A stretch of 64,000 bases of DNA. It comes from Candidatus Brocadia pituitae (GTDB taxonomy: Bacteria > Planctomycetota > Brocadiia > Brocadiales > Brocadiaceae). Below, in pieces: positions 13,996 to 37,444 of this stretch. The DNA lies in assembly GCA_017347445.1 (NCBI GenBank), contig AP021856.1:1-64000 (forward strand). The letters run 5' to 3'. The notes beneath the pieces are model-generated. The model did no database searches. It saw only the letters and a list, made by a program, of their open reading frames with translations, and was not told where the DNA came from. The stretch's first letter is position 1; each line of letters opens with the position of its first letter. The position numbers were made by a program, and so were the translations under genes.

Positions 13996-14916
13996 TTATT
14001 TTTTATCATGGAAGAAATCCTGTTTTACTTTCAAAGAAAAGCTGATATCGGGTCGCAAGTAAACAAACCAAAACATGACGCCGACCAGGATAACGCCCCC
14101 CACAATATTACCCAGAGTAACAGGGATAAGATTATTCACAAAAAATCCCCCCCAGGTAAGTTGGGAGAAGTCTAATGTTTTTCCTGCCATTTTTTCAGCG
14201 GCAGCAACAACAGTGGGATTTCCTTTTAAAGTTATACCCATTGGAATAAAGTACATGTTTGCAACACAGTGTTCAAAGCCGCTTGCAACGAAGCCACCGA
14301 TAGGAAAAACGATAGCAATAATCTTGTCTGCAACATTCCTGCTACTAAAACACAACCACACAGCAAGACATACCATTGAATTGCAAAGAACACCTCTGGC
14401 CAGGGCAACTTTAAAATCCAGATTAACCTTCGTGTTGGCTATCAGGAGTGCCTTTGCACCGACCATATGATGAAAAAATTCAAATTGGTGTGTGTTATAT
14501 ACCCAGAAGACCATGGTAAGACTACCTACAAGATTGCTAACATATGAAATAATCCAGTTATTAAGCACATCACGTGTTCTAATCCTCTTGCTTACGTATC
14601 CCATAATTATTAAATTGTTTCCCGTAAAAAGCTCTGCACCGGCAACAACCACCAACATAAGTCCAAGGGAGAAAGTAATGCCTGCTATCATAGAGGTAAG
14701 CCCAAAGTGCAGGGTAGAGTCACTTGTTACTAACGTGGCAAACTGTGCGCCAATACCAATATAGGCTCCGGCTAATATGCCTAACAAAAATGTCTTAACG
14801 AAGGTTAATTGTGCTTTTACGGTAGCTACTTTATCAATTCTTGCAGCAATTTGTGGGGGTGCATAGGCATCAATATCAATAAGCTGAATTGTTTTGGGAA
14901 CGCTATTTTCCGCCAT
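13996..14916 (-). CDS. focA: FocA/NirC-type formate/nitrite channel, paralogue 1
   Basis: This 306-residue inner-membrane protein of the formate-nitrite transporter family forms a pentameric anion channel. The family signatures are visible: AELFTGNN with the gating threonine, ARGVLCNSMVCLAVW, and GFEHCVANMYFIPMGI with the central pore histidine. About six transmembrane helices are apparent. I chose the ATG at 14916 because AAGGAG stands 9 bases upstream; the open frame extends 23 codons further with no such site. A near-identical layout is found in the gene just upstream, ending 16 bp before this start. In anammox bacteria nitrite uptake is the likely role, but formate cannot be excluded. Confidence 0.9.
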   Translation of the reverse strand: MAENSVPKTIQLIDIDAYAPPQIAARIDKVATVKAQLTFVKTFLLGILAGAYIGIGAQFATLVTSDSTLHFGLTSMIAGITFSLGLMLVVVAGAELFTGNNLIIMGYVSKRIRTRDVLNNWIISYVSNLVGSLTMVFWVYNTHQFEFFHHMVGAKALLIANTKVNLDFKVALARGVLCNSMVCLAVWLCFSSRNVADKIIAIVFPIGGFVASGFEHCVANMYFIPMGITLKGNPTVVAAAEKMAGKTLDFSQLTWGGFFVNNLIPVTLGNIVGGVILVGVMFWFVYLRPDISFSLKVKQDFFHDKK

Positions 14917-14932
14917 ATTCTCATTCTCCTTC

Positions 14933-15835
14933 TTATAATGCCTTCTTTGATGGCCGTAAATAAATATACCAGTAAACGCCAGCAATCAACACAACACCAC
15001 CAAAAAGGTTTCCAAGGACTACCGGTATCATGTTATCAATTAAAAACCCTTTAAAAAAGGTTAGATTCGAGATATCCAATTTTCCCCCGATTACCTTTTC
15101 TGCCGCTGCAACTACGGAACTATTACCTTTCAGCACAAGCGCCATGGGAATAAGCCACATATTGACCACACAATGCTCAAATCCACAGGCAATAAGACAG
15201 GATATAGGCCAGAGTAATGCCAGCATCTTATCAAGATTGCTTCTGCCGCTGTAGCACAACCAAATACCCAGGCATACCAGAGTGTTGCAAAGCACGCCCC
15301 TTGTAAAAGCAGCGCCAAAAGGGATATTTACTTTATCATTAGCAGTGAGAACTATTTTTGCTCCCAGGAGATAATTATTTGCCATCCATTGTCCAGAGTT
15401 GTATATCCATAACACAAGGGTAAGTGCGCCAATGAAATTGCCTATAAAGGCAATGATCAGATTCCTGGCAAGGTCTCTGCCGGTAATTTTTCTAGCCATA
15501 AAAGACATTGCAATAAGGCAATTTCCCGTAAAAAGCTCAGCACCAGCAATTACAATTAAAACCAAAGCCAGGGTAAATGCGACACCACCAACTAACTGGT
15601 TTAAGCCATAGTTAGAAGTAGCTGTATGAATTACAAGCATCCAAAGTTGAGCACCTAATGCAATAAAAACACCGGCAAGAATACTAAGAGCGAGCAGGGT
15701 TAGAGTGCTTAACTTTGATTTCGATACTCCAACCATCCCTACCCTATCCGCCATTTTTGCTGGTGCATAGGCATCGACTTCTAAAACGGGCATAGCATAC
15801 TCTTGAGTCGTGCTGTTATCCTGCGTACCAGGCAT
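14933..15835 (-). CDS. focA: FocA/NirC-type formate/nitrite channel, paralogue 2
   Basis: This second FNT-family channel of 300 residues has the same motifs: AELFTGNCLIA, TRGVLCNTLVCLGIW and GFEHCVVNMWLIPMAL. The N-terminal LEVDAYAPAKMADRVG resembles the IDIDAYAPPQIAARID of paralogue 1, so the pair arose by tandem duplication. The ATG at 15835 follows a GGGGGGG ribosome-like run; an ATG at 15853 is also possible. The two genes are probably one operon, transcribed away from the ScdA_N gene at 16195. Confidence 0.9.
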   Translation of the reverse strand: MPGTQDNSTTQEYAMPVLEVDAYAPAKMADRVGMVGVSKSKLSTLTLLALSILAGVFIALGAQLWMLVIHTATSNYGLNQLVGGVAFTLALVLIVIAGAELFTGNCLIAMSFMARKITGRDLARNLIIAFIGNFIGALTLVLWIYNSGQWMANNYLLGAKIVLTANDKVNIPFGAAFTRGVLCNTLVCLGIWLCYSGRSNLDKMLALLWPISCLIACGFEHCVVNMWLIPMALVLKGNSSVVAAAEKVIGGKLDISNLTFFKGFLIDNMIPVVLGNLFGGVVLIAGVYWYIYLRPSKKAL

Positions 15836-16194
15836 ATATTTCCCCCCCTTCATGGAAAAAATGTATAAGATGAATTATTTAAAGGCAGATATTTTATCAC
15901 ACGGATTGTTCGATTACTATATAGAATTAATTTATTTATACTGAATATTTGTCGTGCACGTTCTCCTTCTAAAGTTGTTTTTATAAAAGATTTCTTCTGC
16001 TTTGCTCTTTTGCTGATAAGAAGACATTTTAGAAATAGCAATAAGATAAGATTTTTACAGGAAAAATTCAAGAAAAATAGATTGCTTTTTCATGAGATTT
16101 TGCTTTATTATGACCCGGTTTTATCTGATAATTGGAGTATGATCGTGCCTGAAAAAGGACAATTGTTTTGAAATAATTTTTGGAGGAAAAGAAG
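15836..16194. other. Divergent intergenic region between focA pair and ScdA_N gene
   Basis: The 359-bp AT-rich gap should hold promoters for both directions. A TTGCTT at 16082 with TATTAT 18 bp later (16106-16111) could serve the ScdA_N gene. I see no convincing promoter for focA. Small open frames here lack ribosome sites. Confidence 0.35.
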
Positions 16195-16386
16195 ATGATT
16201 ACCAAGGACATGGTTATTAACGATGTTATAAAGAAGTATCCCAAGACCATTACGGTGTTTAGCAATTATAAGGTGGATGCATGTTGTGGTGGAGGTTTCA
16301 GTATTGAAAAGACCGTTAGTGCAAGCGGGGGTGACCTGAATGCCTTACTTGCGGCTTTAAATAAAGTTGTAGTGGCAAACAAGTAG
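16195..16386 (+). CDS. Small ScdA_N (DUF542) domain protein
   Basis: This 63-residue protein consists solely of the N-terminal domain found in ScdA/YtfE/RIC iron-sulfur repair proteins. The pattern is VINDVIKKYPKTITVF followed by VDACCGGGFSIEKTV with the adjacent-cysteine motif. In RIC proteins this domain precedes a di-iron hemerythrin part, absent here. Free-standing copies occur near nitrosative-stress and nitrogen-oxide genes. GGAGG at 16182-16186 stands 8 bases before the ATG at 16195, which fixes the start. It is divergent from the nitrite-channel pair, fitting a link to nitrite or nitric oxide. A relative with a DUF1858-type CxxC is at 30.1 kb. Confidence 0.8.
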   Translation: MITKDMVINDVIKKYPKTITVFSNYKVDACCGGGFSIEKTVSASGGDLNALLAALNKVVVANK

Positions 16387-27601: not shown

Positions 27602-27634
27602 AAAGGCTTAATCCCAATGATGGATTAAGCCTTT
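27602..27634 (-). terminator. Rho-independent terminator after the HAO-like gene
   Basis: A 13-bp perfect stem (AAAGGCTTAATCC and its complement) with a 7-base loop is flanked by T-runs on both strands. It lies 35 bp past the HAO-like stop and closes that operon; it could also work in the other direction. Confidence 0.85.
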
Positions 27635-27668
27635 TTTTCAATTCTCACAAAATAGATTTTTTAAAACC

Positions 27669-29345
27669 TTATTCAGCCAAACAATTTTCTCCCTCATGCA
27701 TACACTTTGACTTATCTACGTCGCCCGGCTTTCTCTTCCAGCCCAAGAGCAGATCTGTATACTCACCGTGTTTCCAGAAGTCGTAAGCCTTATGCTGTAT
27801 GCCTACCTTATTCTCAATAGCTTTAATCCTCCTCAACCGACTGGCTTCTGCTTTAACCTGAATAAGCCACCGATCCTGCAGGAAGGCTCCTTTCCCGTAA
27901 GTAGCGCCATACATGGCCCCGTGTGCCATGGCCTTGTATACAGAGTTGGTTATATAGACCAGCATCTCAAAGGATGTACGTTCTATGTCCGAGACATTGT
28001 ACATCCTGCCCTCACCGCCAAGGAGGCTAAAGGTGTAGTGTCCTGCATAGTCAGGGGCCAAATCGTTTGGCATGGGGTCCAGCAGGCCTTCGTTATAAAG
28101 ATCAACCACGATCTTCATGGCCTCACGCCATTTGGTAAAGCTGACTTTTACGGCCTCGTCCATTGCTTCAAACTGGTCTGCTGCAAATCGGGGAGAATGG
28201 CAGCCCTTGCACGTGTTAATCCAGTTTTGTCTTGCCTCTTTAAATCTCGGCGCCCCACGATCGACAAGAGACGTGCCCATATGGCTGTTGATTGTCGATG
28301 CTTTTTGCGCATTATGTTCACCATCCTTCATATGACAATACGCACAGGTGGGGGTTTTATAATTCGCAGGTTTGAGGGGTTTTGTCCAGTCCCAGGTATG
28401 CTGCTCCGATTCATAAATCATTCCATGGTATGATTCCTTATACATCTCATACTCATAGTGGTCGAGTCCGGTGTGGCAGATGCCACAGTTATTCGGTTTT
28501 CTTGCTTCGGCCACGGAAAAATCATGCCTTGTATGACACCCATCACAACGGTTTTCAGCGATGCCATGACAGGTGGCACAGGCTGTTACCTCTGCTGCCG
28601 GCTTTGCGATCTGCCAGGGAGCTTCTATTACGCTTACATGGAACGCATGCGTATGTGAGCCAATCTTTCCGGCACGGTGGCCTGCCTGTTGTTCAGGATG
28701 ACACTCACCACAATGCTTCCAGGAAGGCATGTACAACTGCTGATGATTATTTCCATGGCATTTATCACACCCTACGACACCCTTCTCCGTAGATGCGTGC
28801 TTGCTCTTTTTCCATTGCGCTACAATACCGGGCGTCTGGACGGTATGACACATAACGCACTCTTCATGCTTAAATTCTCCCGATACGTTCATATTCGGTG
28901 TGTAATAATGATCAGGGTCATACCATCGCATCAGAGGCAAAAATCCAAAGAGTTTGCCAAATTTGCCCTCACCAGGGAGCACCTCTTCCGGAGGGGTATA
29001 ACTGGCTGTTAAACCGGCGTGATACAGGTCTCCTGAATTATCAGCGCCCATTTTTTCTCCCGTCAGCTCAGAAATAATTTGCTGGACGGTCCTCTTGTCT
29101 TTCGGACGGGAAGCCAATTCTTCCTTTTTTACCGAACAGAGAGCCTTTGCGTCCTTTTGCGTTTCAGGAGCAGAAGCCTCTTGCGGTATCTCTTTTACTG
29201 GTTTAGCGGAGACTTCCTTTTCCTCCCCCTGCTTGATAGTCGTGACTTCTGCTTTTTTCACCGCCGCTTGCTCACAACCAAGCTGGATACAGCCAAACAG
29301 GGCAAGCATACCCAAAGAGATCGTAAATTTTATCCCCTTGCTCAT
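27669..29345 (-). CDS. Octaheme c hydroxylamine oxidoreductase-like protein
   Basis: This 558-residue exported protein has eight CXXCH heme c motifs (about residues 163, 193, 212, 256, 267, 287, 334, 379), the count and spacing of the HAO family. A hydrophobic leader carries LFGC and QLGC near residues 16-24, so it may be a lipoprotein. A spacer of about 100 residues rich in K, E and P precedes the first heme. The ATG at 29345 has AAGGAG 8 bases upstream. Family members oxidise hydroxylamine or hydrazine, or reduce nitrite; which applies depends on a cross-linking tyrosine near the C terminus that I cannot place with confidence. It ends an operon of small redox-type proteins and is followed by a strong terminator. 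Confidence 0.9.
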   Translation of the reverse strand: MSKGIKFTISLGMLALFGCIQLGCEQAAVKKAEVTTIKQGEEKEVSAKPVKEIPQEASAPETQKDAKALCSVKKEELASRPKDKRTVQQIISELTGEKMGADNSGDLYHAGLTASYTPPEEVLPGEGKFGKLFGFLPLMRWYDPDHYYTPNMNVSGEFKHEECVMCHTVQTPGIVAQWKKSKHASTEKGVVGCDKCHGNNHQQLYMPSWKHCGECHPEQQAGHRAGKIGSHTHAFHVSVIEAPWQIAKPAAEVTACATCHGIAENRCDGCHTRHDFSVAEARKPNNCGICHTGLDHYEYEMYKESYHGMIYESEQHTWDWTKPLKPANYKTPTCAYCHMKDGEHNAQKASTINSHMGTSLVDRGAPRFKEARQNWINTCKGCHSPRFAADQFEAMDEAVKVSFTKWREAMKIVVDLYNEGLLDPMPNDLAPDYAGHYTFSLLGGEGRMYNVSDIERTSFEMLVYITNSVYKAMAHGAMYGATYGKGAFLQDRWLIQVKAEASRLRRIKAIENKVGIQHKAYDFWKHGEYTDLLLGWKRKPGDVDKSKCMHEGENCLAE

Positions 29346-29420
29346 ATCCTTTTTCTCCTTTTCTTCAACCATGTTTGATTAAGAATAGACAATACATTCA
29401 GCGTAACCTGTAATGACGCC

Positions 29421-29657
29421 TTATTTTTTTGTTATTTCTACTTTCCAGACTTCAGGACCTTGCTCAACATATTTCCAGTCTAATTGCCCGCTCCGTTCTG
29501 CATCTAACTGGTACTTTAAGGGTTTTGGATCGTGGTCATTGATCAAGATCATCATCTCTCCTTTTTTCAGTCCGTCAAAGGTGTTAAATATCTTTGGATG
29601 CCTTTCTCTGGGCACAATACTTCTTACATCGAGAACAACGGGCTGTGTCTTACTCAT
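29421..29657 (-). CDS. DUF2249 domain protein
   Basis: This 78-residue protein matches the whole DUF2249 pattern: VVLDVRSIVPRERHPKIF, an F-D-x-L-x-x-G-E stretch, LINDHDPKPLKYQ and the GPEVWKVEI end. The family is often encoded beside denitrification and nitric oxide-related genes; its biochemical role is not known to me. It lies between the cupin gene (22 bp) and the HAO-like gene (76 bp). Confidence 0.88.
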   Translation of the reverse strand: MSKTQPVVLDVRSIVPRERHPKIFNTFDGLKKGEMMILINDHDPKPLKYQLDAERSGQLDWKYVEQGPEVWKVEITKK

Positions 29658-29679
29658 ATCTCTCCCTTTTTTTATGAAT

Positions 29680-29982
29680 TTATCCTACGCTGATAGCCAA
29701 AACGACCATTCTTTCTGTGCACCGCATACCCCTCGACGTCCCCTCGGGAGCGACAAAAATCATATCCTTTTTCATATCAATTTCTTTATTATCGAGGGTA
29801 AATACTCCCTTTCCTTCTTTTACATAAAAAATACCCACACTCTGCCCGCCATGGGGTGGGATTTCCTGGCCGGGTTCCATACAAATAAGCGGCATCTTTA
29901 CCTTTGGTGAGGCGTAAAGAATATTTGGAATAAAATGATCTTTGTTAAATTTTATCTTTTCTTCTAAACATATTGGTTCCAT
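29680..29982 (-). CDS. Small cupin-domain protein
   Basis: This 100-residue single-domain cupin has EPGQEIPPHGGQSVGIFYV as motif 1 and a later FVAPEGTSRGMRC segment as motif 2. The first motif has one histidine (PHGG) where metal-binding cupins usually have two, so metal binding is uncertain. No substrate can be named. It belongs to the run leading to the HAO-like gene and has a GGAGG-type site (from + strand CCTCC) upstream of its ATG. Confidence 0.8.
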   Translation of the reverse strand: MEPICLEEKIKFNKDHFIPNILYASPKVKMPLICMEPGQEIPPHGGQSVGIFYVKEGKGVFTLDNKEIDMKKDMIFVAPEGTSRGMRCTERMVVLAISVG

Positions 29983-30108
29983 GGTATGCGCCGACCTCCT
30001 TACCTAACCTTCATGAATGATTAATATTATTTCACGACGACAGAACTACGCCTCATGCCATCCTTACATGACAGGTCTCACCTTTTTACAATGGAAAACT
30101 GCGGCCTT

Positions 30109-30339
30109 CTATGGGGTCTTGATTGCATCTTTTTGAGCTGCTTCGTTTAATTCATTTACGAATTTATCCACATCTGTGCTATGCATCATGCATGCGAGGT
30201 TGATGTCTTCCGTGCCAAAGGAAGGGCAATCGAAGCATCCTTTCCCGAAATATTTTGTAAAAACAGCTTTTGTTGCAGGATATTTCTTTGTTACCTCTCC
30301 TGTGCTCATTTTCTTAGTGATAAGAATTTCACTACCCAT
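30109..30339 (-). CDS. DUF1858-like disulfide domain protein
   Basis: This 76-residue protein has the DUF1858 layout: a TGEVTKKYPATKAVFTKY helix, the GKGCFDCP redox-type CxxC, a second cysteine in LACMMH, and a DVDKFVNELN end. The family is associated with hybrid-cluster proteins and iron-sulfur or nitric oxide handling. It is related in length and role to the ScdA_N protein at 16.2 kb. It sits between the radical SAM gene and the cupin gene. Confidence 0.85.
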   Translation of the reverse strand: MGSEILITKKMSTGEVTKKYPATKAVFTKYFGKGCFDCPSFGTEDINLACMMHSTDVDKFVNELNEAAQKDAIKTP

Positions 30340-30372
30340 ATTTATCCTCCTCTCGATAAAAATACCAAAAAA

Positions 30373-31614
30373 TTATCCTACCCCTGCGAGGGCAATTTCC
30401 TGATCGGCAAGCTCGATAGGCGCAATATCCTCTATTTTTACCGGTAGCCGCACATCTTTTGGAAGCGGGTCAATATACTTTTTCCGGTATGCCTTGCTCT
30501 GCATGCGGCAGGTGGGGTATCGCTTGCTAAAGTCGGGATGCGTGACCATCTTCTTCCAAATTTCCTGTATAGACATCTCACGGACGTTTCCAAAATTAAT
30601 GGGATTAAAGTCACAAGGATTAATATCGCCATATGCCGTCATATAGAATTGTGACTGAGCTCCATAACAACCCACCCCCCGCGGTGAATTGATAATCGAC
30701 ATACAATTGATTCCCATAGGATGGTCCATCTCGTGATACTTTTTCGTTATGGCAATCAATTGTTTCCTGTCTTCTGCCGTTAATATTTTCGATGTATCCT
30801 TTAAAAACCGGCCTGACGGAATACAATCGAAGATCGTTACCTCTGAAAAGCCTTGTTCCTGGGCGATCTTTAAAAGTTTTTCGACCTTTCCTGTCTTAAT
30901 ACTTTCACTCGTTGCATAGGTGGAGATACCCGTCAGGATGCCTGCCTTGCGACAACGTTCTGCTCCCTCGAAGGCTTTTTGGTAACACCCTGGTACTGCC
31001 CTGAATTCGTTGTGTAATTCAGGCTCACTGCTATCGATGGAGATATTTAAGGAAAACAAACCTGCCTGCGCGAGTTTTCGGACGTTGTCTTCGGTGAGGA
31101 GCAATCCATTGGTAAAGATCATGGGGATTGCCTTGGTTTTATCCACGAAATGAATGAGATCGTAAAGCTCCTCGCGGAGTAGAGGTTCTCCGCCTACGTA
31201 GATGATAAGGCTTGCCCCAAGATCCAATGCCCCATCAACCACCGTCTTTATTTCCTCTACCGTAAGCTCCTTTTTTGCATGATCGATAAAGGGGTCAGCG
31301 CTGCAATGAATGCACTGACACTGGCATTTATGGGTAATGGCTAAATTAGCCGTAACGGGAAATGCCATCTTATGCAGCATCATTCTCAACTTGCGTTCGA
31401 GAAATCTCATGCCTGCCTGACTGGGAAATGGCGGATTAAACAGGTTATAAACGTTCATGCCATTCATTTTGGCGATCACCTTCAGGGAATTAATCTTCTC
31501 AAAAAACTGGTCCACGTATGGCTGTAACATGTTCCCCAACACTCCTCCAGCTTTTCCAGCAATTTTCCCTTCGCGAATCTCGGCATCAATATGTAAAAAA
31601 TCAAATGAAGTCAT
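30373..31614 (-). CDS. Radical SAM protein with SPASM-like C-terminal cysteines
   Basis: This 413-residue enzyme has the radical SAM cluster motif C97-x3-C101-x2-C104 (THKCQCQCIHC). A GGEPLL SAM-binding segment follows. C-terminal cysteines (GCYGAQS, NPCDF, PTCRMQ) suggest auxiliary clusters of the SPASM type. About 90 residues precede the cluster motif. It resembles the NirJ/AhbC/AhbD-type heme-modification or peptide-modification enzymes, but I cannot choose. Its ATG overlaps the preceding oxidoreductase stop by four bases, and four small genes and the HAO-like gene follow. A role in maturing a cofactor for that protein is a guess from context. Confidence 0.85.
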   Translation of the reverse strand: MTSFDFLHIDAEIREGKIAGKAGGVLGNMLQPYVDQFFEKINSLKVIAKMNGMNVYNLFNPPFPSQAGMRFLERKLRMMLHKMAFPVTANLAITHKCQCQCIHCSADPFIDHAKKELTVEEIKTVVDGALDLGASLIIYVGGEPLLREELYDLIHFVDKTKAIPMIFTNGLLLTEDNVRKLAQAGLFSLNISIDSSEPELHNEFRAVPGCYQKAFEGAERCRKAGILTGISTYATSESIKTGKVEKLLKIAQEQGFSEVTIFDCIPSGRFLKDTSKILTAEDRKQLIAITKKYHEMDHPMGINCMSIINSPRGVGCYGAQSQFYMTAYGDINPCDFNPINFGNVREMSIQEIWKKMVTHPDFSKRYPTCRMQSKAYRKKYIDPLPKDVRLPVKIEDIAPIELADQEIALAGVG

Positions 31615-32648
31615 AATTTACCCTCCCTACTCTTTGCATGGTGGACTAATTGGAGATTTTTTTCTATCTCGCATACAATATCATTTGCGACTTCAATAGC
31701 CTTTAACCCCTCTTCTCCTGAAACAACTGGCTCTTTACGCCCTACAACACAATCGACAAAAGAGCTAAGTTCCTTTTTCAGCGGTTCACAATTATCCATT
31801 TTTATATGCTCCACTTTTAATAAATCACCAAATACATAACTTTTCAAATCCGCAATGGTTGAAACATCCATTGCAGAGAGATCGAGCGTCTTGAGCGTCA
31901 GCTTCGGTGATTTTTTATATATTAATGCATCTCTTTTCTGATAATCAATAGAAATATATGAATCCTCGGAGAACAATCTCATTTTCCGCATCGAGGTAAT
32001 TGATACGCGGCTCGCGGTAACATTTGCCACACAGCCATTCTGAAATTGCATTCTTACGTTTGCAATATCCTCTTTATCGGAAATCACATTCACCCCTACG
32101 GCATCAAATTTTTTTACCTTAGACCCTGTTATATGCAGAAGAATGTCAATATCATGAATCATCAGATCAAGTACCACCCCAATATCAGCAGAACGGAAGG
32201 TAAATGGGCTCAACCGATGACATTCGATAAAGCGGGGGTTGATTGAGAGTTTTTTTATCGCATCTATCGCGGGATTAAAACGTTCAATATACCCTGCCTG
32301 AAGCACCACCCCCTTTGCTTTACTTATAGAGATTAATTCCCTTGCCTCCTGCACCGTGCCTGTCATGGGTTTTTCGATCATGACGTGAATGCCGTGCTGA
32401 AGGAAATCCTTTGCAATGCTGTAATGGGATTTTGTGGGCACGGCAATACTCACGGCCTCTGCCTGGTCAAGTACCTCCTTATAGTTTGAAAAGTATTTTG
32501 TATGGTATTGTTGTGCGATCTTCTCCGCTTGCGGAGGTTGAATGTCAACAACCCCAACCAGCGCCACCCCCGGTAATTCTGAATAGACCCTTGCATGCTC
32601 TTTTCCCAAATGGCCAACGCCAATTACCGCAACCTTTAAGTCAGACAT
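31611..32648 (-). CDS. Gfo/Idh/MocA oxidoreductase, possibly GnnA-like
   Basis: This 345-residue NAD-dependent oxidoreductase has an N-terminal Rossmann loop VIGVGHLGKEHARV and the family's EKP motif in MIEKPMTGT. It begins two bases after lpxA. In several bacteria a gene of this family beside lpxA encodes GnnA, which oxidises UDP-GlcNAc at C3 so that GnnB can install an amino group for amide-linked lipid A. No GnnB-like aminotransferase is in the window. The GnnA assignment is therefore inference. It overlaps the radical SAM gene by four bases. Confidence 0.85.
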   Translation of the reverse strand: MSDLKVAVIGVGHLGKEHARVYSELPGVALVGVVDIQPPQAEKIAQQYHTKYFSNYKEVLDQAEAVSIAVPTKSHYSIAKDFLQHGIHVMIEKPMTGTVQEARELISISKAKGVVLQAGYIERFNPAIDAIKKLSINPRFIECHRLSPFTFRSADIGVVLDLMIHDIDILLHITGSKVKKFDAVGVNVISDKEDIANVRMQFQNGCVANVTASRVSITSMRKMRLFSEDSYISIDYQKRDALIYKKSPKLTLKTLDLSAMDVSTIADLKSYVFGDLLKVEHIKMDNCEPLKKELSSFVDCVVGRKEPVVSGEEGLKAIEVANDIVCEIEKNLQLVHHAKSREGKL

Positions 32649-32650
32649 AA

Positions 32651-33469
32651 TCAAGTTACCGTTGCTGCCGTGTGGCGAAAAGATTCCCGATACCTTCCGG
32701 ACTTGCCCTTATCAATATTTCTCAGAAAGGTAACCAGATATTTGACTACCGGAGAAACAGCTTCGTTCGTTTCCAGGGTTTCAAGTACAGAGTTCCTGTT
32801 CAATTCGCCGGAGCGAAATATCTTACGAAATGCCTCTTTAATTTCATCGATTTGTTCTGTCGAAAAATCTTCTCTTTCTAATCCAATGACATTTACCTGG
32901 CGTATCTTTGCGGGATGGCCTTCAACAATCATATAAGGCGGCACATCCTGAACAATCCGGGTATGGCCTCCTACATAGGCATATCGGCCAATAGTTGCGA
33001 AAGGCTGTATGCCAACAAGCCCCATCAGCTTAGCGCATCTTTCCACCACAACATGTCCACCCAGGAGCACACCATTTGCCAACAGAACATTATCTTCGAT
33101 AATACAATCATGTGCAATATGTGAATATGCCATAAAAAAATTATTGTCACCGATTACCGTTTTTTCTCCGCCACCCGTCGTACCCTTGTTAATGGTTACG
33201 CCTTCCCTGATTACATTATTGTCTCCCATTATAAGGGAAGTTTGCTCACCACGATATTTTAGATCCTGCGGCTCAGCACCCAGGACAGCATTTGGATGGA
33301 TGATGTTATTTCTTCCAATGATCGTATTGCCGGTTACTGTAACGTTATTTTTTATAATAGTTCCATCTCCAAGCGTAACCGTTTTACCGATAATACTAAA
33401 AGGACCAATTTCAATTTCTTTACCCAAAACGGCATCGGGGTGAACAATAGCTGATCTATGAATCTTCAA
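32651..33469 (-). CDS. lpxA: Acyl-ACP--UDP-N-acetylglucosamine O-acyltransferase
   Basis: LpxA acylates UDP-GlcNAc in the first step of lipid A synthesis. The protein is a left-handed beta-helix of hexapeptide repeats (for example IIGRNNIIHPNAVLG) with the catalytic histidine in HIAHDCIIED. I give the TTG at 33469 (272 residues): KIHRSAIVHPDA then sits at the N terminus as in the family, and GGGGGA lies 7 bases upstream. An ATG at 33484 and a GTG at 33493 are alternatives. It lies in the lpxC-lpxA-oxidoreductase cluster. Confidence 0.93.
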   Translation of the reverse strand: MKIHRSAIVHPDAVLGKEIEIGPFSIIGKTVTLGDGTIIKNNVTVTGNTIIGRNNIIHPNAVLGAEPQDLKYRGEQTSLIMGDNNVIREGVTINKGTTGGGEKTVIGDNNFFMAYSHIAHDCIIEDNVLLANGVLLGGHVVVERCAKLMGLVGIQPFATIGRYAYVGGHTRIVQDVPPYMIVEGHPAKIRQVNVIGLEREDFSTEQIDEIKEAFRKIFRSGELNRNSVLETLETNEAVSPVVKYLVTFLRNIDKGKSGRYRESFRHTAATVT

Positions 33470-33543
33470 CCTGCATTCCCCCATTTTTCGCACTGTTCCA
33501 ACTTTTTTCTCCCCTCTCCACGCCAGCGATAATTCTTTATGAG

Positions 33544-34398
33544 CTATGCAAGGTTTACGATCTTTTCTGCTAACCGGGCATTCAGAGAATGTCCTGACCT
33601 GGTTGCAACAATACGTCCTTGTATTACGACATTCGCCAAATAAAGGTCACCTATCAGGTCCAGGATTTTGTGTCTTACCAATTCATTTGGAAATCGTAAT
33701 TCGGCAGGTTTCATAGAATGAGGTTTTGTCATCGTGCCATCTTTATGCACAATGATACTATTATCATCGGTAACCCCTTTTCCCAAACCAAGCTGCCTGA
33801 ACTCTTCAATAAAGGTGCTTAGCCCAAATGTCCTTGCCGGGGCAATTTCCTTGCAAAAGCTTTCTTCTGTAAATTCGATATCAAATGTTTGCTGCTGGAG
33901 AAAAGAACCTTGAAAATCCAGAGTATACGATAATGACAGGCCTTTTTCATAAGGGACGGCCATAATGTTTGCGTTTCCGCTTTCAACAGTTATTGAATTT
34001 TTGACAACAAAAACCCTTTTTGTGCCCCCCAGGTCAACGGTCCCTGCTTTTTTCAGAATGTCTACAAAAAACTGTGCGCTCCCATCCCCTGCCGGAACTT
34101 CCCTGCCATTTATTTCAATTTCGATATTATCGATCCCAAGCCCTGCTAAGGATGCCATAAGATGCTCTATACACTCAACTTCTGCGTCATTATGCTTGAG
34201 AAAAATGCGCCGGTAATTATTTGCTAATGAATGAACATGTGCCGGAATCCTTGGCCGACCTGGGAGATCAACACGAACAAATGATATGCCGCTGTTTAAA
34301 GGCGCCGGCTTTAAATGGAGTATCGTATTCTCTCCCCGAAACATCCCTATCCCGGAGCACCCAACTTCCTGCAGGATTGTTTTTTGTGTGCTGGCCAC
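33544..34398 (-). CDS. lpxC: UDP-3-O-acyl-N-acetylglucosamine deacetylase
   Basis: LpxC is the zinc-dependent, committed step of lipid A synthesis. The 284 residues hold the zinc ligands: histidine in ECIEHLMASLAG, and histidine and aspartate in RHKILDLIGDLYL. The GREVPAGDGSAQFF segment and the late histidine in SGHSLNARLAEK are also typical. The start is GTG, ten bases after AAGGG. It follows ompH by three bases. lpxD, usual between ompH and lpxA, is missing from this cluster. Confidence 0.95.
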   Translation of the reverse strand: MASTQKTILQEVGCSGIGMFRGENTILHLKPAPLNSGISFVRVDLPGRPRIPAHVHSLANNYRRIFLKHNDAEVECIEHLMASLAGLGIDNIEIEINGREVPAGDGSAQFFVDILKKAGTVDLGGTKRVFVVKNSITVESGNANIMAVPYEKGLSLSYTLDFQGSFLQQQTFDIEFTEESFCKEIAPARTFGLSTFIEEFRQLGLGKGVTDDNSIIVHKDGTMTKPHSMKPAELRFPNELVRHKILDLIGDLYLANVVIQGRIVATRSGHSLNARLAEKIVNLA

Positions 34399-34401
34399 AA
34401 A

Positions 34402-35022
34402 CTACTTTCCCTTGGTTCCCTGAGAAAATCGTTTATTCAGGTTGTCAATTACCCGATTGGTAATATCAACGGAGTCAGAATTATAGAGGACGGTTTTGAT
34501 TCCAACCTTGAACTGCAATTCAGAAATCCCGCCGCTTTGCATCTCTGGCTCTTCTTTCTTAATAATCAGATCATATTGTTCTCGTTTGCCGATATCTTCT
34601 ACCTCATTGCAGACTTCCGTATAAAGACTTCCGAAATAATCCTTATACTTTTTGGTAAGGCTCTTTTCTGCGAACTTTGCGTATGATTCTAGTTCTATAT
34701 TCTTTTTTTCGAAGGTCTCTTCATCTTTTTTTCTGGCTTCACTCCCAAGGTCCAGCAATTGTATCTTCTCACCAAGACTTACCAGTTCCTTCTTTCTGTC
34801 AGTGATATTTTTTTGGTATTGTTTTTCCTGCTCTTTTAACTGCGTATCAAAGACCTTTCTCTTCTCATATTTTTCGAATACCGCATTTAAATCAACAACC
34901 CCTACCTTTAATCCTTTCGACGGCGAAGCAGTTCCCCCCTCTTCTTTTGCCTGAATCGCGTTTGGTAGCCACAGACACAAGCATATAAAACTTGTTACGA
35001 TACAAAAAACAACCTTTTTCAT
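34402..35022 (-). CDS. OmpH/Skp family periplasmic chaperone
   Basis: This 206-residue secreted protein has a signal peptide (KKVVFCIVTSFICLCLWLP, ending near IQAKEE). A typical Skp beginning, KVGVVDLNAVFEKYEKRKVF, follows, and then a long lysine/glutamate-rich coiled coil. Skp-type chaperones carry outer-membrane proteins through the periplasm. I chose the ATG at 35022, where the signal peptide begins; the open frame reaches 35109 inside bamA. The bamA-ompH-lpxC-lpxA order is the common outer-membrane biogenesis cluster. Confidence 0.88.
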   Translation of the reverse strand: MKKVVFCIVTSFICLCLWLPNAIQAKEEGGTASPSKGLKVGVVDLNAVFEKYEKRKVFDTQLKEQEKQYQKNITDRKKELVSLGEKIQLLDLGSEARKKDEETFEKKNIELESYAKFAEKSLTKKYKDYFGSLYTEVCNEVEDIGKREQYDLIIKKEEPEMQSGGISELQFKVGIKTVLYNSDSVDITNRVIDNLNKRFSQGTKGK

Positions 35023-35059
35023 CGTCTCGTTTTTCTTAACCGTTTTCGCTGATATCATG

Positions 35060-37444
35060 TTAATAGCTGTTACCTCCTCCGAAATTAAATGAAAATGACT
35101 GTGTTTCATCCTTATCCTCCTGGATTATGGGAATACCGTAATCGATGGATATTGTTGAGCGTCCAAGAAAAGGTACATTCAATCGTAATCCAACCCCTGA
35201 GGATAACCGAAACCGGTCAAAATTAATGTCACTGGCACTTTTATCCGCCTTTCCCGTGTCAACAAAGACGGCGGCACGGATCATGTCCTTATAGACGGGT
35301 ATAAGATATTCTGTGTTCATTAACATCAGGAGATCTCCACCAATCTGATCACCGGTTTTCGAATCAACCGGAGACACACCCCGAAACCGGAATCCGCGAA
35401 TAGAGTTGTAACCTCCGGCATAAAATCTTTCAAAGATAGGAACATCTTCCCCTGAAGTTGACTCTACAAGGCCAAAAGTGCCCCCGTATGCTAGTACATG
35501 TTTACCCCATTTGGGAATTTCAAAGAGGGTTTTGAATTTTGTTACCTGAAATATATATTTTGCAATATCCACATCCAGCCCTGCGATTTCTAAGGAAGAT
35601 TCACCCTGGAATCCTTTCGTTGGGGCGTAGATATTATCCGTTTTGTTTATGTTTGCCGACAACGTAACACCGGCTTTCAAATAGCTGCCTTCCGCATCCA
35701 GGACATCCTGTGGTACGTCTTCATCATCCTCACCATCACGTTTTGAAATGTCAATGATGTTAAGTTCAGGGCTAAGTTTTACAAAAAAATCTCTTTGCAG
35801 TTCCCTGCCCACGGAAACCCTTGAACCGATGTCCTGTTGTTCATACTCCCGATACCAGCGAAGGTAATCAAAAAAACTTAACCCAGCGCTGTAAGGTGAA
35901 TCAAATACGGATGGATTTGTCAAAGACGCCATAATTTCGGTTCTTTGAAAACCAGGACTAAACCGCAACGTTAAGATCTCACCGGCGCCGCGAAAGGCAT
36001 TCCCCTGTAAAAAATCGTCCCAACTTTTTGGTAAATCCGTGACGTCAAAGTTTCTGTCCGTGTAGGAAACATCCCCGAATACTCCGACATTTGCCCCAAA
36101 ACCTCCACCGAACCGCAGCATGCCCGTTCGTCCTTCTTTTACGTCTACCACAATATTTTGCTTATCTGGTTCGGAGCCTTGTTCAAAATTAATTCCAGCG
36201 GGCATTCCGGACTCCATATCAAAATACCCTGTATTGGCAAGCCGTCGCTGGCTGTCACGGATCTTTTCGGTATCCAGTTTTTCTCCGGGGTGAAAGGTTA
36301 ACTGCCGGCGGATAACATTATCCCGTGTTTTATCATTTCCCGTTATCTTGATCTTTTCGATATAATGCCGGTCTTTCTCCTCTACCGTAAAAAACACATT
36401 TACCTTTGCGCCTTCCGAACTAAAGGTATGCTTTTCTTTGACAACGGTTGTAACATACCCTTGTTCCCCATACATTAAACGGAGCTGATAGGTATCCTTG
36501 TCTACCGCGTCTAAAAAGAATGGTCCCCCTTGCTGTAATTTCAATTTTCCCTTTAATTCCTCATCGGTAAACAGGGCGGCGCCTTTTATGGTTAAGGTTT
36601 CTACGGAATATCTTTCTCCCTCTTTTATATGAAGGGTAAGGTACATCGTCTTATTGTCGTCTCCGTACGTTATGTCCCACCCGACATCAACGTCCAGCCA
36701 TCCGTTATTCATGTAAAACTCTTTTACCTTTTCAACGTCGGCTTCAAACTTTTTCGAGTCAAATCTTCCCGGGAAGATAAATGCAGGAAACCGCTTCCGC
36801 CTGGTTTCCATCTGTTTCAGAAGCTTTCTTCGTTTGAAGCCGGTATTTCCTTCAAACGATATTTTGGCAATGCGTATCTTAGGTCCCTCGTTAATGTTAA
36901 AGACAACGGTCGTTTTCCCGTCCACTGTTTTACTCTCAGCGTGCACCTGCACCCGATTAAAGCATTTTTTTATGTAGAGTTCCTTTATTTTCTCCTCTTC
37001 CAATTTCAGCAGGTAATATTTTAAATAATCCCCTTTTTTTATCTCAAGTTGCTTTTCCAGTTTTTTGGTCTTAATCTTCTTATTTCCGGTAAATTGTATT
37101 TCGTCAATCATGGCCCGTTCAGTTACCACAAAAATAAGCTTCAGCCCGTCTTTGAGCTCTTCAACTTCCACCTCAATATTGTCAAAGAATCCCAGCGACC
37201 AGATCGCATCTACATCCCGGCTTACTGCCAGTGGATTATAAAGATCGCCTTCTTTCACCCGGAAGCTGCTCTTTATCGCTGAGGGACTGATTCTCTGTGT
37301 TCCACGGATCTCAATTTTTTTTATCGTTTGAGCTGTTTTATTCTGAGTTTCAGCGCAAGGTATTTCTTTATAACCCACACAGAAGATTAAAACAAGCACT
37401 CCGAACAAACGTGTTGCTTGCAACAAAACCCTGCACAGCCTCAT
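35060..37444 (-). CDS. bamA: Outer membrane protein assembly factor BamA
   Basis: BamA is the core of the machine that inserts beta-barrels into the outer membrane. The 794-residue precursor has a signal sequence (about 1-30), five POTRA domains (about 40-420; each begins with an I-x-G-N/A-type strand, such as EIQFTGNKKI and KITGNDKTRDN) and an Omp85 barrel with the RGFRFRG motif of strand-six loop. The C terminus ends in Tyr rather than the usual Phe. Its ATG overlaps the dnaB stop by four bases, an unusual upstream partner. Confidence 0.95.
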   Translation of the reverse strand: MRLCRVLLQATRLFGVLVLIFCVGYKEIPCAETQNKTAQTIKKIEIRGTQRISPSAIKSSFRVKEGDLYNPLAVSRDVDAIWSLGFFDNIEVEVEELKDGLKLIFVVTERAMIDEIQFTGNKKIKTKKLEKQLEIKKGDYLKYYLLKLEEEKIKELYIKKCFNRVQVHAESKTVDGKTTVVFNINEGPKIRIAKISFEGNTGFKRRKLLKQMETRRKRFPAFIFPGRFDSKKFEADVEKVKEFYMNNGWLDVDVGWDITYGDDNKTMYLTLHIKEGERYSVETLTIKGAALFTDEELKGKLKLQQGGPFFLDAVDKDTYQLRLMYGEQGYVTTVVKEKHTFSSEGAKVNVFFTVEEKDRHYIEKIKITGNDKTRDNVIRRQLTFHPGEKLDTEKIRDSQRRLANTGYFDMESGMPAGINFEQGSEPDKQNIVVDVKEGRTGMLRFGGGFGANVGVFGDVSYTDRNFDVTDLPKSWDDFLQGNAFRGAGEILTLRFSPGFQRTEIMASLTNPSVFDSPYSAGLSFFDYLRWYREYEQQDIGSRVSVGRELQRDFFVKLSPELNIIDISKRDGEDDEDVPQDVLDAEGSYLKAGVTLSANINKTDNIYAPTKGFQGESSLEIAGLDVDIAKYIFQVTKFKTLFEIPKWGKHVLAYGGTFGLVESTSGEDVPIFERFYAGGYNSIRGFRFRGVSPVDSKTGDQIGGDLLMLMNTEYLIPVYKDMIRAAVFVDTGKADKSASDINFDRFRLSSGVGLRLNVPFLGRSTISIDYGIPIIQEDKDETQSFSFNFGGGNSY

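What the first reader, a model, noticed from the sequence alone, without database searches (positions are those of the whole stretch)
27669..31614. Octaheme HAO-like gene at the end of an operon of radical SAM, DUF1858, cupin and DUF2249 proteins
Four genes (radical SAM, CxxC DUF1858, cupin, DUF2249) run with short gaps into an eight-heme HAO-like protein and stop at a strong terminator. DUF1858 and DUF2249 families are known to co-occur with nitric oxide and denitrification genes. The set could be a nitrite or NO reducing or detoxifying module, with the radical SAM enzyme serving a cofactor or peptide modification. The functional unit is inference; the gene order and heme motifs are seen directly.
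Basis: partly seen in the sequence, partly recalled or inferred. Interest (0 to 1): 0.62.

Follow-up and report, generated by a model that had tools for sequence, protein, structure and literature searches.

The report
Anammox HAO joined to repair-type gene cassette
The five neighbouring genes are real and conserved in one family of ammonia-eating (anammox) bacteria, but they are three older units joined end to end: a cell-envelope radical SAM gene, a small cassette of a kind tied elsewhere to nitric-oxide damage and iron-centre repair, and an orphan hydroxylamine-oxidising heme enzyme whose role this may help to test.

Summary
Radical SAM, DUF1858, cupin, DUF2249 and an octaheme HAO-like gene run in one direction and end at a strong hairpin. 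All five lie together in 29 of 33 genomes of the window's family (Brocadia, Jettenia, Kuenenia, Loosdrechtia). The "five-gene module" reading holds only in part. (1) The radical SAM gene overlaps the upstream Gfo/Idh gene (ATGA) and belongs to a bamA-skp-lpxC-lpxA-Gfo/Idh cluster in four families of the order; in other Planctomycetota it follows lpxB. Kuenenia (G031) lacks it but keeps the rest. (2) DUF1858-cupin-(cupin)-DUF2249 is a separate cassette, beside dnaA in most Scalindua. Relatives of its cupin outside the order sit with Nfu, ApbC, DSCCGG (ScdA_N-like) and DUF2249-hemerythrin genes, pointing to nitric-oxide-linked iron-centre repair or sensing. (3) The HAO matches kusta0043 and carries the P460 cross-linking tyrosine (Y492) and KsHAO-type methionine (M365), so it should oxidise hydroxylamine, not reduce nitrite. 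A different HAO paralogue stands beside the same cassette in two Scalindua-family genomes, a second, independent pairing. Best reading: a hydroxylamine-to-NO oxidase paired with a cytoplasmic repair or sensing cassette, downstream of an unrelated lipid A cluster. No activity or co-transcription was tested.

The parts
27669..29345 (-). Octaheme HAO-like gene (ORF open from 29372; likely start ATG 29345). Orthologue of kusta0043; eight CxxCH; Tyr492 (P460 cross-link position) at 27897-27899; Met365 (KsHAO Met323 position); residue numbers count from 29372
29421..29657 (-). DUF2249 protein, 78 aa; the only DUF2249 gene of the genome
29680..29982 (-). Small cupin (cupin1), 100 aa; invariant or near-invariant C34, E36, Q39, H44, R84-G85; no classic 3-His/1-Glu metal site
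30109..30339 (-). DUF1858 protein, 76 aa, CFDCP redox-type motif; over the cut-off of TIGR03980 (hybrid-cluster-protein-associated disulfide domain)
30373..31614 (-). Radical SAM/SPASM protein, 413 aa, CX3CX2C motif C97-C101-C104; belongs to the lipid A / outer-membrane cluster rather than to the HAO
31611..32654 (-). Gfo/Idh dehydrogenase (nearest NCBIfam model UDP-GlcNAc 3-dehydrogenase, below cut-off), overlaps the radical SAM start by 4 nt
32651..37444 (-). lpxA, lpxC, skp/ompH and bamA homologues upstream in the same direction, named by reading the sequence; the set and its order are conserved with the radical SAM gene across the order
27603..27640 (-). Intrinsic terminator hairpin (AAAAAGGCTTAATCC..GGATTAAGCCTTTTT), usable from either side; ends the run before moeA

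Best explanation
The locus joins three units. (a) The radical SAM enzyme is the last gene of a lipid A / outer-membrane cluster and probably acts on an envelope precursor. (b) DUF1858-cupin-(second cupin)-DUF2249 is a cytoplasmic cassette that senses or repairs damage to iron and iron-sulfur centres by NO and related nitrogen oxides: DUF1858 as a CxxC redox partner of the ScdA_N kind, the Cys/His cupin and DUF2249 as ligand-binding or sensing parts. (c) The HAO-like protein is exported and should be a trimeric P460 octaheme enzyme that oxidises hydroxylamine to NO. Pairing (b) with (c) would couple hydroxylamine clearance outside the cytoplasm to protection or signalling inside it. Shown: gene order, conservation, heme and tyrosine motifs, alternative contexts. 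Inferred: all activities, the compartments and co-transcription.
For: HAO: Multi-haem_cyto and Hao_C; phmmer E 3.6e-183 to KsHAO (4n4j) with Tyr and Met aligned; Tyr kept in 15 of 16 aligned family orthologues; this clade and the HOX, HDH and YSPIYGYWEW clades separate with strong support. Orthologue of kusta0043: the G031 ORF at this locus is 591 aa, the length printed for kusta0043 in PMC3482989. Cassette: DUF2249 is single copy and found only in the cassette region in 46 of 46 genomes that have it. Outside the order cupin1 sits with Nfu, a COX1/CcoN-like stub, a second cupin, a DSCCGG (ScdA_N-like) protein, ApbC and a 4Fe-4S/NIR_SIR protein in a group of five loci (not every gene seen in each, some contigs end early), and shortly upstream of a DUF2249-hemerythrin type gene in six. 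Papers: COG4309 with norB (PMC1274295), DrpA/DrpB (PMC6282519), haloarchaeal DUF2249 induced in denitrification (PMC11218638). Independent pairing: HAO of another clade next to DUF1858 in G049 and G058. Radical SAM: LpxC-LpxA-Gfo/Idh-radical SAM in all 11 loci inspected from families f2-f4, none followed by cassette or HAO; directly after lpxB with a 4-nt overlap in L168 and L172.
Against: Cassette and HAO do not need each other: family f3 has tyrosine-bearing HAOs of the two related clades without the cassette, most Scalindua have the cassette near dnaA without an adjacent HAO, and 21 of 26 genomes reached through cupin1 loci outside the order have no close HAO. About 25 of the 36 outside cupin1 loci show no informative neighbour among those checked. 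The second HAO-cassette pairing is one event in two sister genomes. The cassette itself has no hemerythrin domain. No expression or activity data were available.
Confidence: 0.5

Rival explanations
1. One reading: one five-gene nitrite- or NO-reducing module in which the radical SAM enzyme makes a cofactor or modifies a peptide for the HAO.
For: All five genes stay together in 29 of 33 genomes of the family; the weak best NCBIfam hits of the radical SAM protein include heme-synthesis enzymes AhbD and NirJ.
Against: AhbD and NirJ2 scores are 155 and 140 bits against cut-offs of 500. The radical SAM gene is tied to lpx genes in every Brocadiales locus inspected and lacks cassette and HAO outside the family. 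G031 has cassette and HAO with a clean absence of the radical SAM gene. The cross-link tyrosine argues for oxidation (PMC12758564).
Confidence: 0.07
2. The cassette is a maturation factor for the tyrosine-heme (P460) cross-link of HAO proteins.
For: Adjacent to tyrosine-bearing HAOs of two clades; the one detached HAO found in the family, in G033, has lost the tyrosine.
Against: Family f3 has tyrosine-bearing HAOs but no cassette cupin or DUF2249. The cassette proteins show no export signal on reading their N-termini, whereas the HAO N-terminus looks like a signal.
Confidence: 0.06
3. The cassette is a regulator of the DrpA/DrpB kind that senses nitrate, nitrite or NO and controls HAO expression, without repair.
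For: DUF2249 and DUF1858 are the domains of DrpA/DrpB, proposed nitrate sensors of Thermus; cupin1 and a DUF2249-type gene flank a response regulator in L228 and probably L237 and L241.
Against: No DNA-binding domain in the cassette; the group of five outside loci is rich in Fe-S assembly and carrier genes.
Confidence: 0.17
4. Pure position: three unrelated units fell together in the ancestor of the family and stayed by chance or for shared transcription, with no functional link of cassette and HAO.
For: Each unit occurs without the others in other families.
Against: Retained across the genera of the family, and a different HAO paralogue joined the same cassette on the opposite side elsewhere.
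Confidence: 0.2

Closest known systems
KsHAO / HOX (kustc1061; PDB 4n4j) and kusta0043 of Kuenenia stuttgartiensis
   Same: Octaheme HAO family, eight CxxCH, cross-link tyrosine and KsHAO-type methionine; kusta0043 has the same length as the orthologue at this locus in G031
   Different: A separate clade, 58% identical to the likely HOX of the same genome, with a long N-terminal linker; no function assigned to kusta0043 in the papers read
DrpA/DrpB of Thermus thermophilus
   Same: DUF2249 and DUF1858 domains beside nitrogen-oxide metabolism
   Different: Here separate small genes plus one or two cupins, no DUF2249 repeat, not beside nar
RIC / YtfE / ScdA iron-centre repair proteins and DUF2249-hemerythrin proteins
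   Same: CxxC domain of the DUF1858-ScdA_N kind; the cupin's outside relatives neighbour DSCCGG small proteins and DUF2249-hemerythrin fusions
   Different: No hemerythrin di-iron domain in the cassette itself
Lipid A gene cluster (bamA-skp-lpxC-lpxA-Gfo/Idh, lpxB)
   Same: The radical SAM gene is its conserved last member in four families of the order and follows lpxB in other Planctomycetota
   Different: No described radical SAM enzyme of lipid A synthesis turned up in the one paper search made; the cluster is continued by cassette and HAO only in this family

Membership tests
Oxidative HAO (P460 octaheme) | Eight CxxCH heme motifs and HAO-type domains | tested here: met
Oxidative HAO (P460 octaheme) | Tyrosine at the heme-4 cross-link position | tested here: met
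   Y492 aligns with KsHAO and NeHAO tyrosines
Oxidative HAO (P460 octaheme) | Trimer, P460 spectrum, hydroxylamine oxidation | not testable with these tools
   no biochemistry
Hydrazine dehydrogenase (NF052343) | Curated cut-off 900 bits | tested here: not met
   447 bits
Reductive HAO (kustc0458 type) | No cross-link tyrosine | tested here: not met
   tyrosine present
RIC/YtfE | Hemerythrin-like di-iron domain | tested here: not met
   none of the cassette proteins has it
RIC/YtfE | ScdA_N domain over cut-off | tested here: not met
   DUF1858 protein scores 15 against 32.5 bits; a true ScdA_N gene lies elsewhere in the window at 16180-16386
DrpA/DrpB | DUF2249 protein; DUF1858-DUF2249-DUF2249 fusion | tested here: inconclusive
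   single DUF2249 protein present, fusion absent
AhbD / NirJ heme-synthesis radical SAM | NCBIfam cut-offs | tested here: not met
   155 and 140 bits against 500
Radical SAM superfamily | CX3CX2C motif and Pfam cut-off | tested here: met

The most novel reading that the evidence does not exclude
A cytoplasmic cassette of DUF1858, one or two Cys/His cupins and DUF2249 is a distinct nitric-oxide / iron-centre repair or sensing system of anammox bacteria with relatives in other anaerobes, and anammox bacteria have twice independently put it next to a P460 hydroxylamine oxidoreductase, giving the orphan kusta0043 a detoxification role.
Probability: 0.3. Interest if true: 0.65.

Novelty: new variant of a known kind. 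Interest (0 to 1): 0.45.

Why it matters
The roles of most of the roughly ten HAO paralogues in anammox bacteria are unknown, kusta0043 among them. This gives a concrete, testable partner set for it and argues against two leads (nitrite reduction, radical SAM maturation). It also exposes a radical SAM enzyme placed in the lipid A gene cluster of Planctomycetota, and a cupin family with a Cys/His signature next to iron-centre repair genes.

Tried and rejected
Radical SAM as AhbD or NirJ: scores far below cut-offs. Radical SAM fold prediction: mean pLDDT 49 with a shallow alignment, not used. Cassette as a required P460 maturase: rejected because family f3 has the tyrosine without the cassette. 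Ladderane role of the radical SAM gene: not favoured, because no match was found in the 13 genomes of genus g20 (Scalindua) or in G031. Three region requests failed on length and were redone. Papers on the KsHAO structure and on HAOr are not held; KsHAO Met323 is from memory, checked against chain numbering. Expression of the cassette: no mention in the transcriptome papers searched. Search for the radical SAM gene in the group of a cupin-bearing Deltaproteobacterium: 1 of 297 genomes, 40% identity.

Full report
Observation. Two corrections: the HAO probably starts at 29345, and the run does not begin at the radical SAM gene, whose ATG overlaps the stop of a Gfo/Idh dehydrogenase gene (ATGA), with lpxA, lpxC, skp and bamA homologues further upstream.

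Conservation. Searches of 62 genomes of the order show all five genes on one contig in order in 29 of 33 genomes of the window's family f1. Contig lengths and titles name several f1 members: Brocadia, Jettenia, Kuenenia hertensis, Loosdrechtia. Of the four exceptions, G037 is 58% complete, G043 shows no HAO of this clade at the locus (contig end not checked), G031 has no radical SAM gene, and in G033 the HAO is elsewhere. In G031 the Gfo/Idh stop is followed after 3 nt by the DUF1858 start, so the radical SAM gene is cleanly absent.

Radical SAM. Outside f1 it follows LpxC-LpxA-Gfo/Idh, with Skp and mostly BamA further upstream, in all 11 loci inspected from families f2, f3 and f4, and in none is it followed by cassette or HAO. 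In six other Planctomycetota (52-58% identical) it overlaps lpxB by 4 nt in L168 and L172 and lies near lpxB in L173; the other three loci show no such neighbour or end too early. It is 71-96% identical across the order. Its tie is to the envelope, and a role for the HAO has no support beyond position.

Cassette. DUF1858-cupin-DUF2249 occurs in f1, f4 and f5. Many genomes carry a second cupin that Brocadia lacks. In most Scalindua genomes examined it lies beside the cluster that is dnaA, dnaN and gyrB in L080, so it is a unit of its own. DUF2249 is single copy in all 46 genomes that have it and lies at the cassette. A scan of GTDB genomes for the cupin found 36 loci outside the order, mostly Deltaproteobacteria, Nitrospirae and Nitrospinota MAGs. 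Five form a group with Nfu, a COX1-like stub, cupin2, a DSCCGG small protein (with DUF1858 as well in L224), cupin1, ApbC and a 4Fe-4S/NIR_SIR protein in a row; six have a DUF2249 gene of about 225 aa shortly downstream, shown to be a DUF2249-hemerythrin fusion in L218 and alike by clustering in the rest. The DSCCGG protein was read by eye as ScdA_N-like; a similar protein in the window is ScdA_N over its cut-off. The cupin has invariant C34 and E36 and near-invariant H44, and its model (pLDDT 95.6) is an ordinary single-domain cupin.

HAO. The protein is 58-61% identical to two paralogues in its own genome. One of these lies beside two genes with two CxxCH motifs each, as expected for the kustc1061-type HAO placed next to hydrazine synthase alpha in KSU-1 (PMC3655542). 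The tree puts the f1 proteins in one strongly supported clade, apart from HOX, HDH and the YSPIYGYWEW clade. Tyr492 aligns with the cross-link tyrosines of NeHAO and KsHAO, and Met365 with KsHAO Met323. PMC12758564 ties the tyrosine to oxidative function. The label HAO4 is inferred from its stated absence from Scalindua, not tested. PMC12053348 reports kusta0043 downregulated under hydrazine shock.

Linkage of cassette and HAO. In G049 and G058 (family f4) an HAO of the YSPIYGYWEW clade stands upstream of DUF1858, on the opposite side from the f1 arrangement: a second, independent pairing, though one event. Against an obligate link: f3 has HAOs without the cassette, most Scalindua have the cassette without an adjacent HAO, and 21 of 26 outside genomes have no close HAO.

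Verdict. Ordinary in its parts, informative in its arrangement: the finding is a family-specific junction of a lipid A cluster, a likely NO / iron-centre cassette and an orphan oxidative HAO. The function of each part is inferred.

Noticed in passing
window 13996-16386: Two formate/nitrite transporter genes (Form_Nir_trans) on the minus strand and a divergent stand-alone ScdA_N gene (16180-16386, motif DACCGGG), about 11 kb from the HAO; in G028 an ScdA_N gene lies about 320 nt beyond the HAO.
   Followed up: partly
L067 / L071 (G033): The only f1 HAO of this clade found detached from the cassette has lost the cross-link tyrosine and the methionine and sits on a long branch.
   Followed up: partly
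L168, L172, L173: Radical SAM gene directly after lpxB, or after lpxB and a KASIII-like gene, in other Planctomycetota: a possible unrecorded step of lipid A or envelope synthesis.
   Followed up: partly
window 29345-29280: The HAO N-terminus in Brocadia fits a lipobox (ALFGC), while a Kuenenia orthologue has an ordinary-looking signal ending in VHADA: the anchoring may differ between genera (read by eye).
   Followed up: no
L120-L122 (family f3): The cassette-type DUF1858 occurs there as the second half of a tandem 160-aa protein; next to a DUF4438 protein in L122, with a similar-sized neighbour in L120.
   Followed up: no
L074 4061-4713: skp appears split into two overlapping ORFs in G016, possibly a frameshift.
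   Followed up: no
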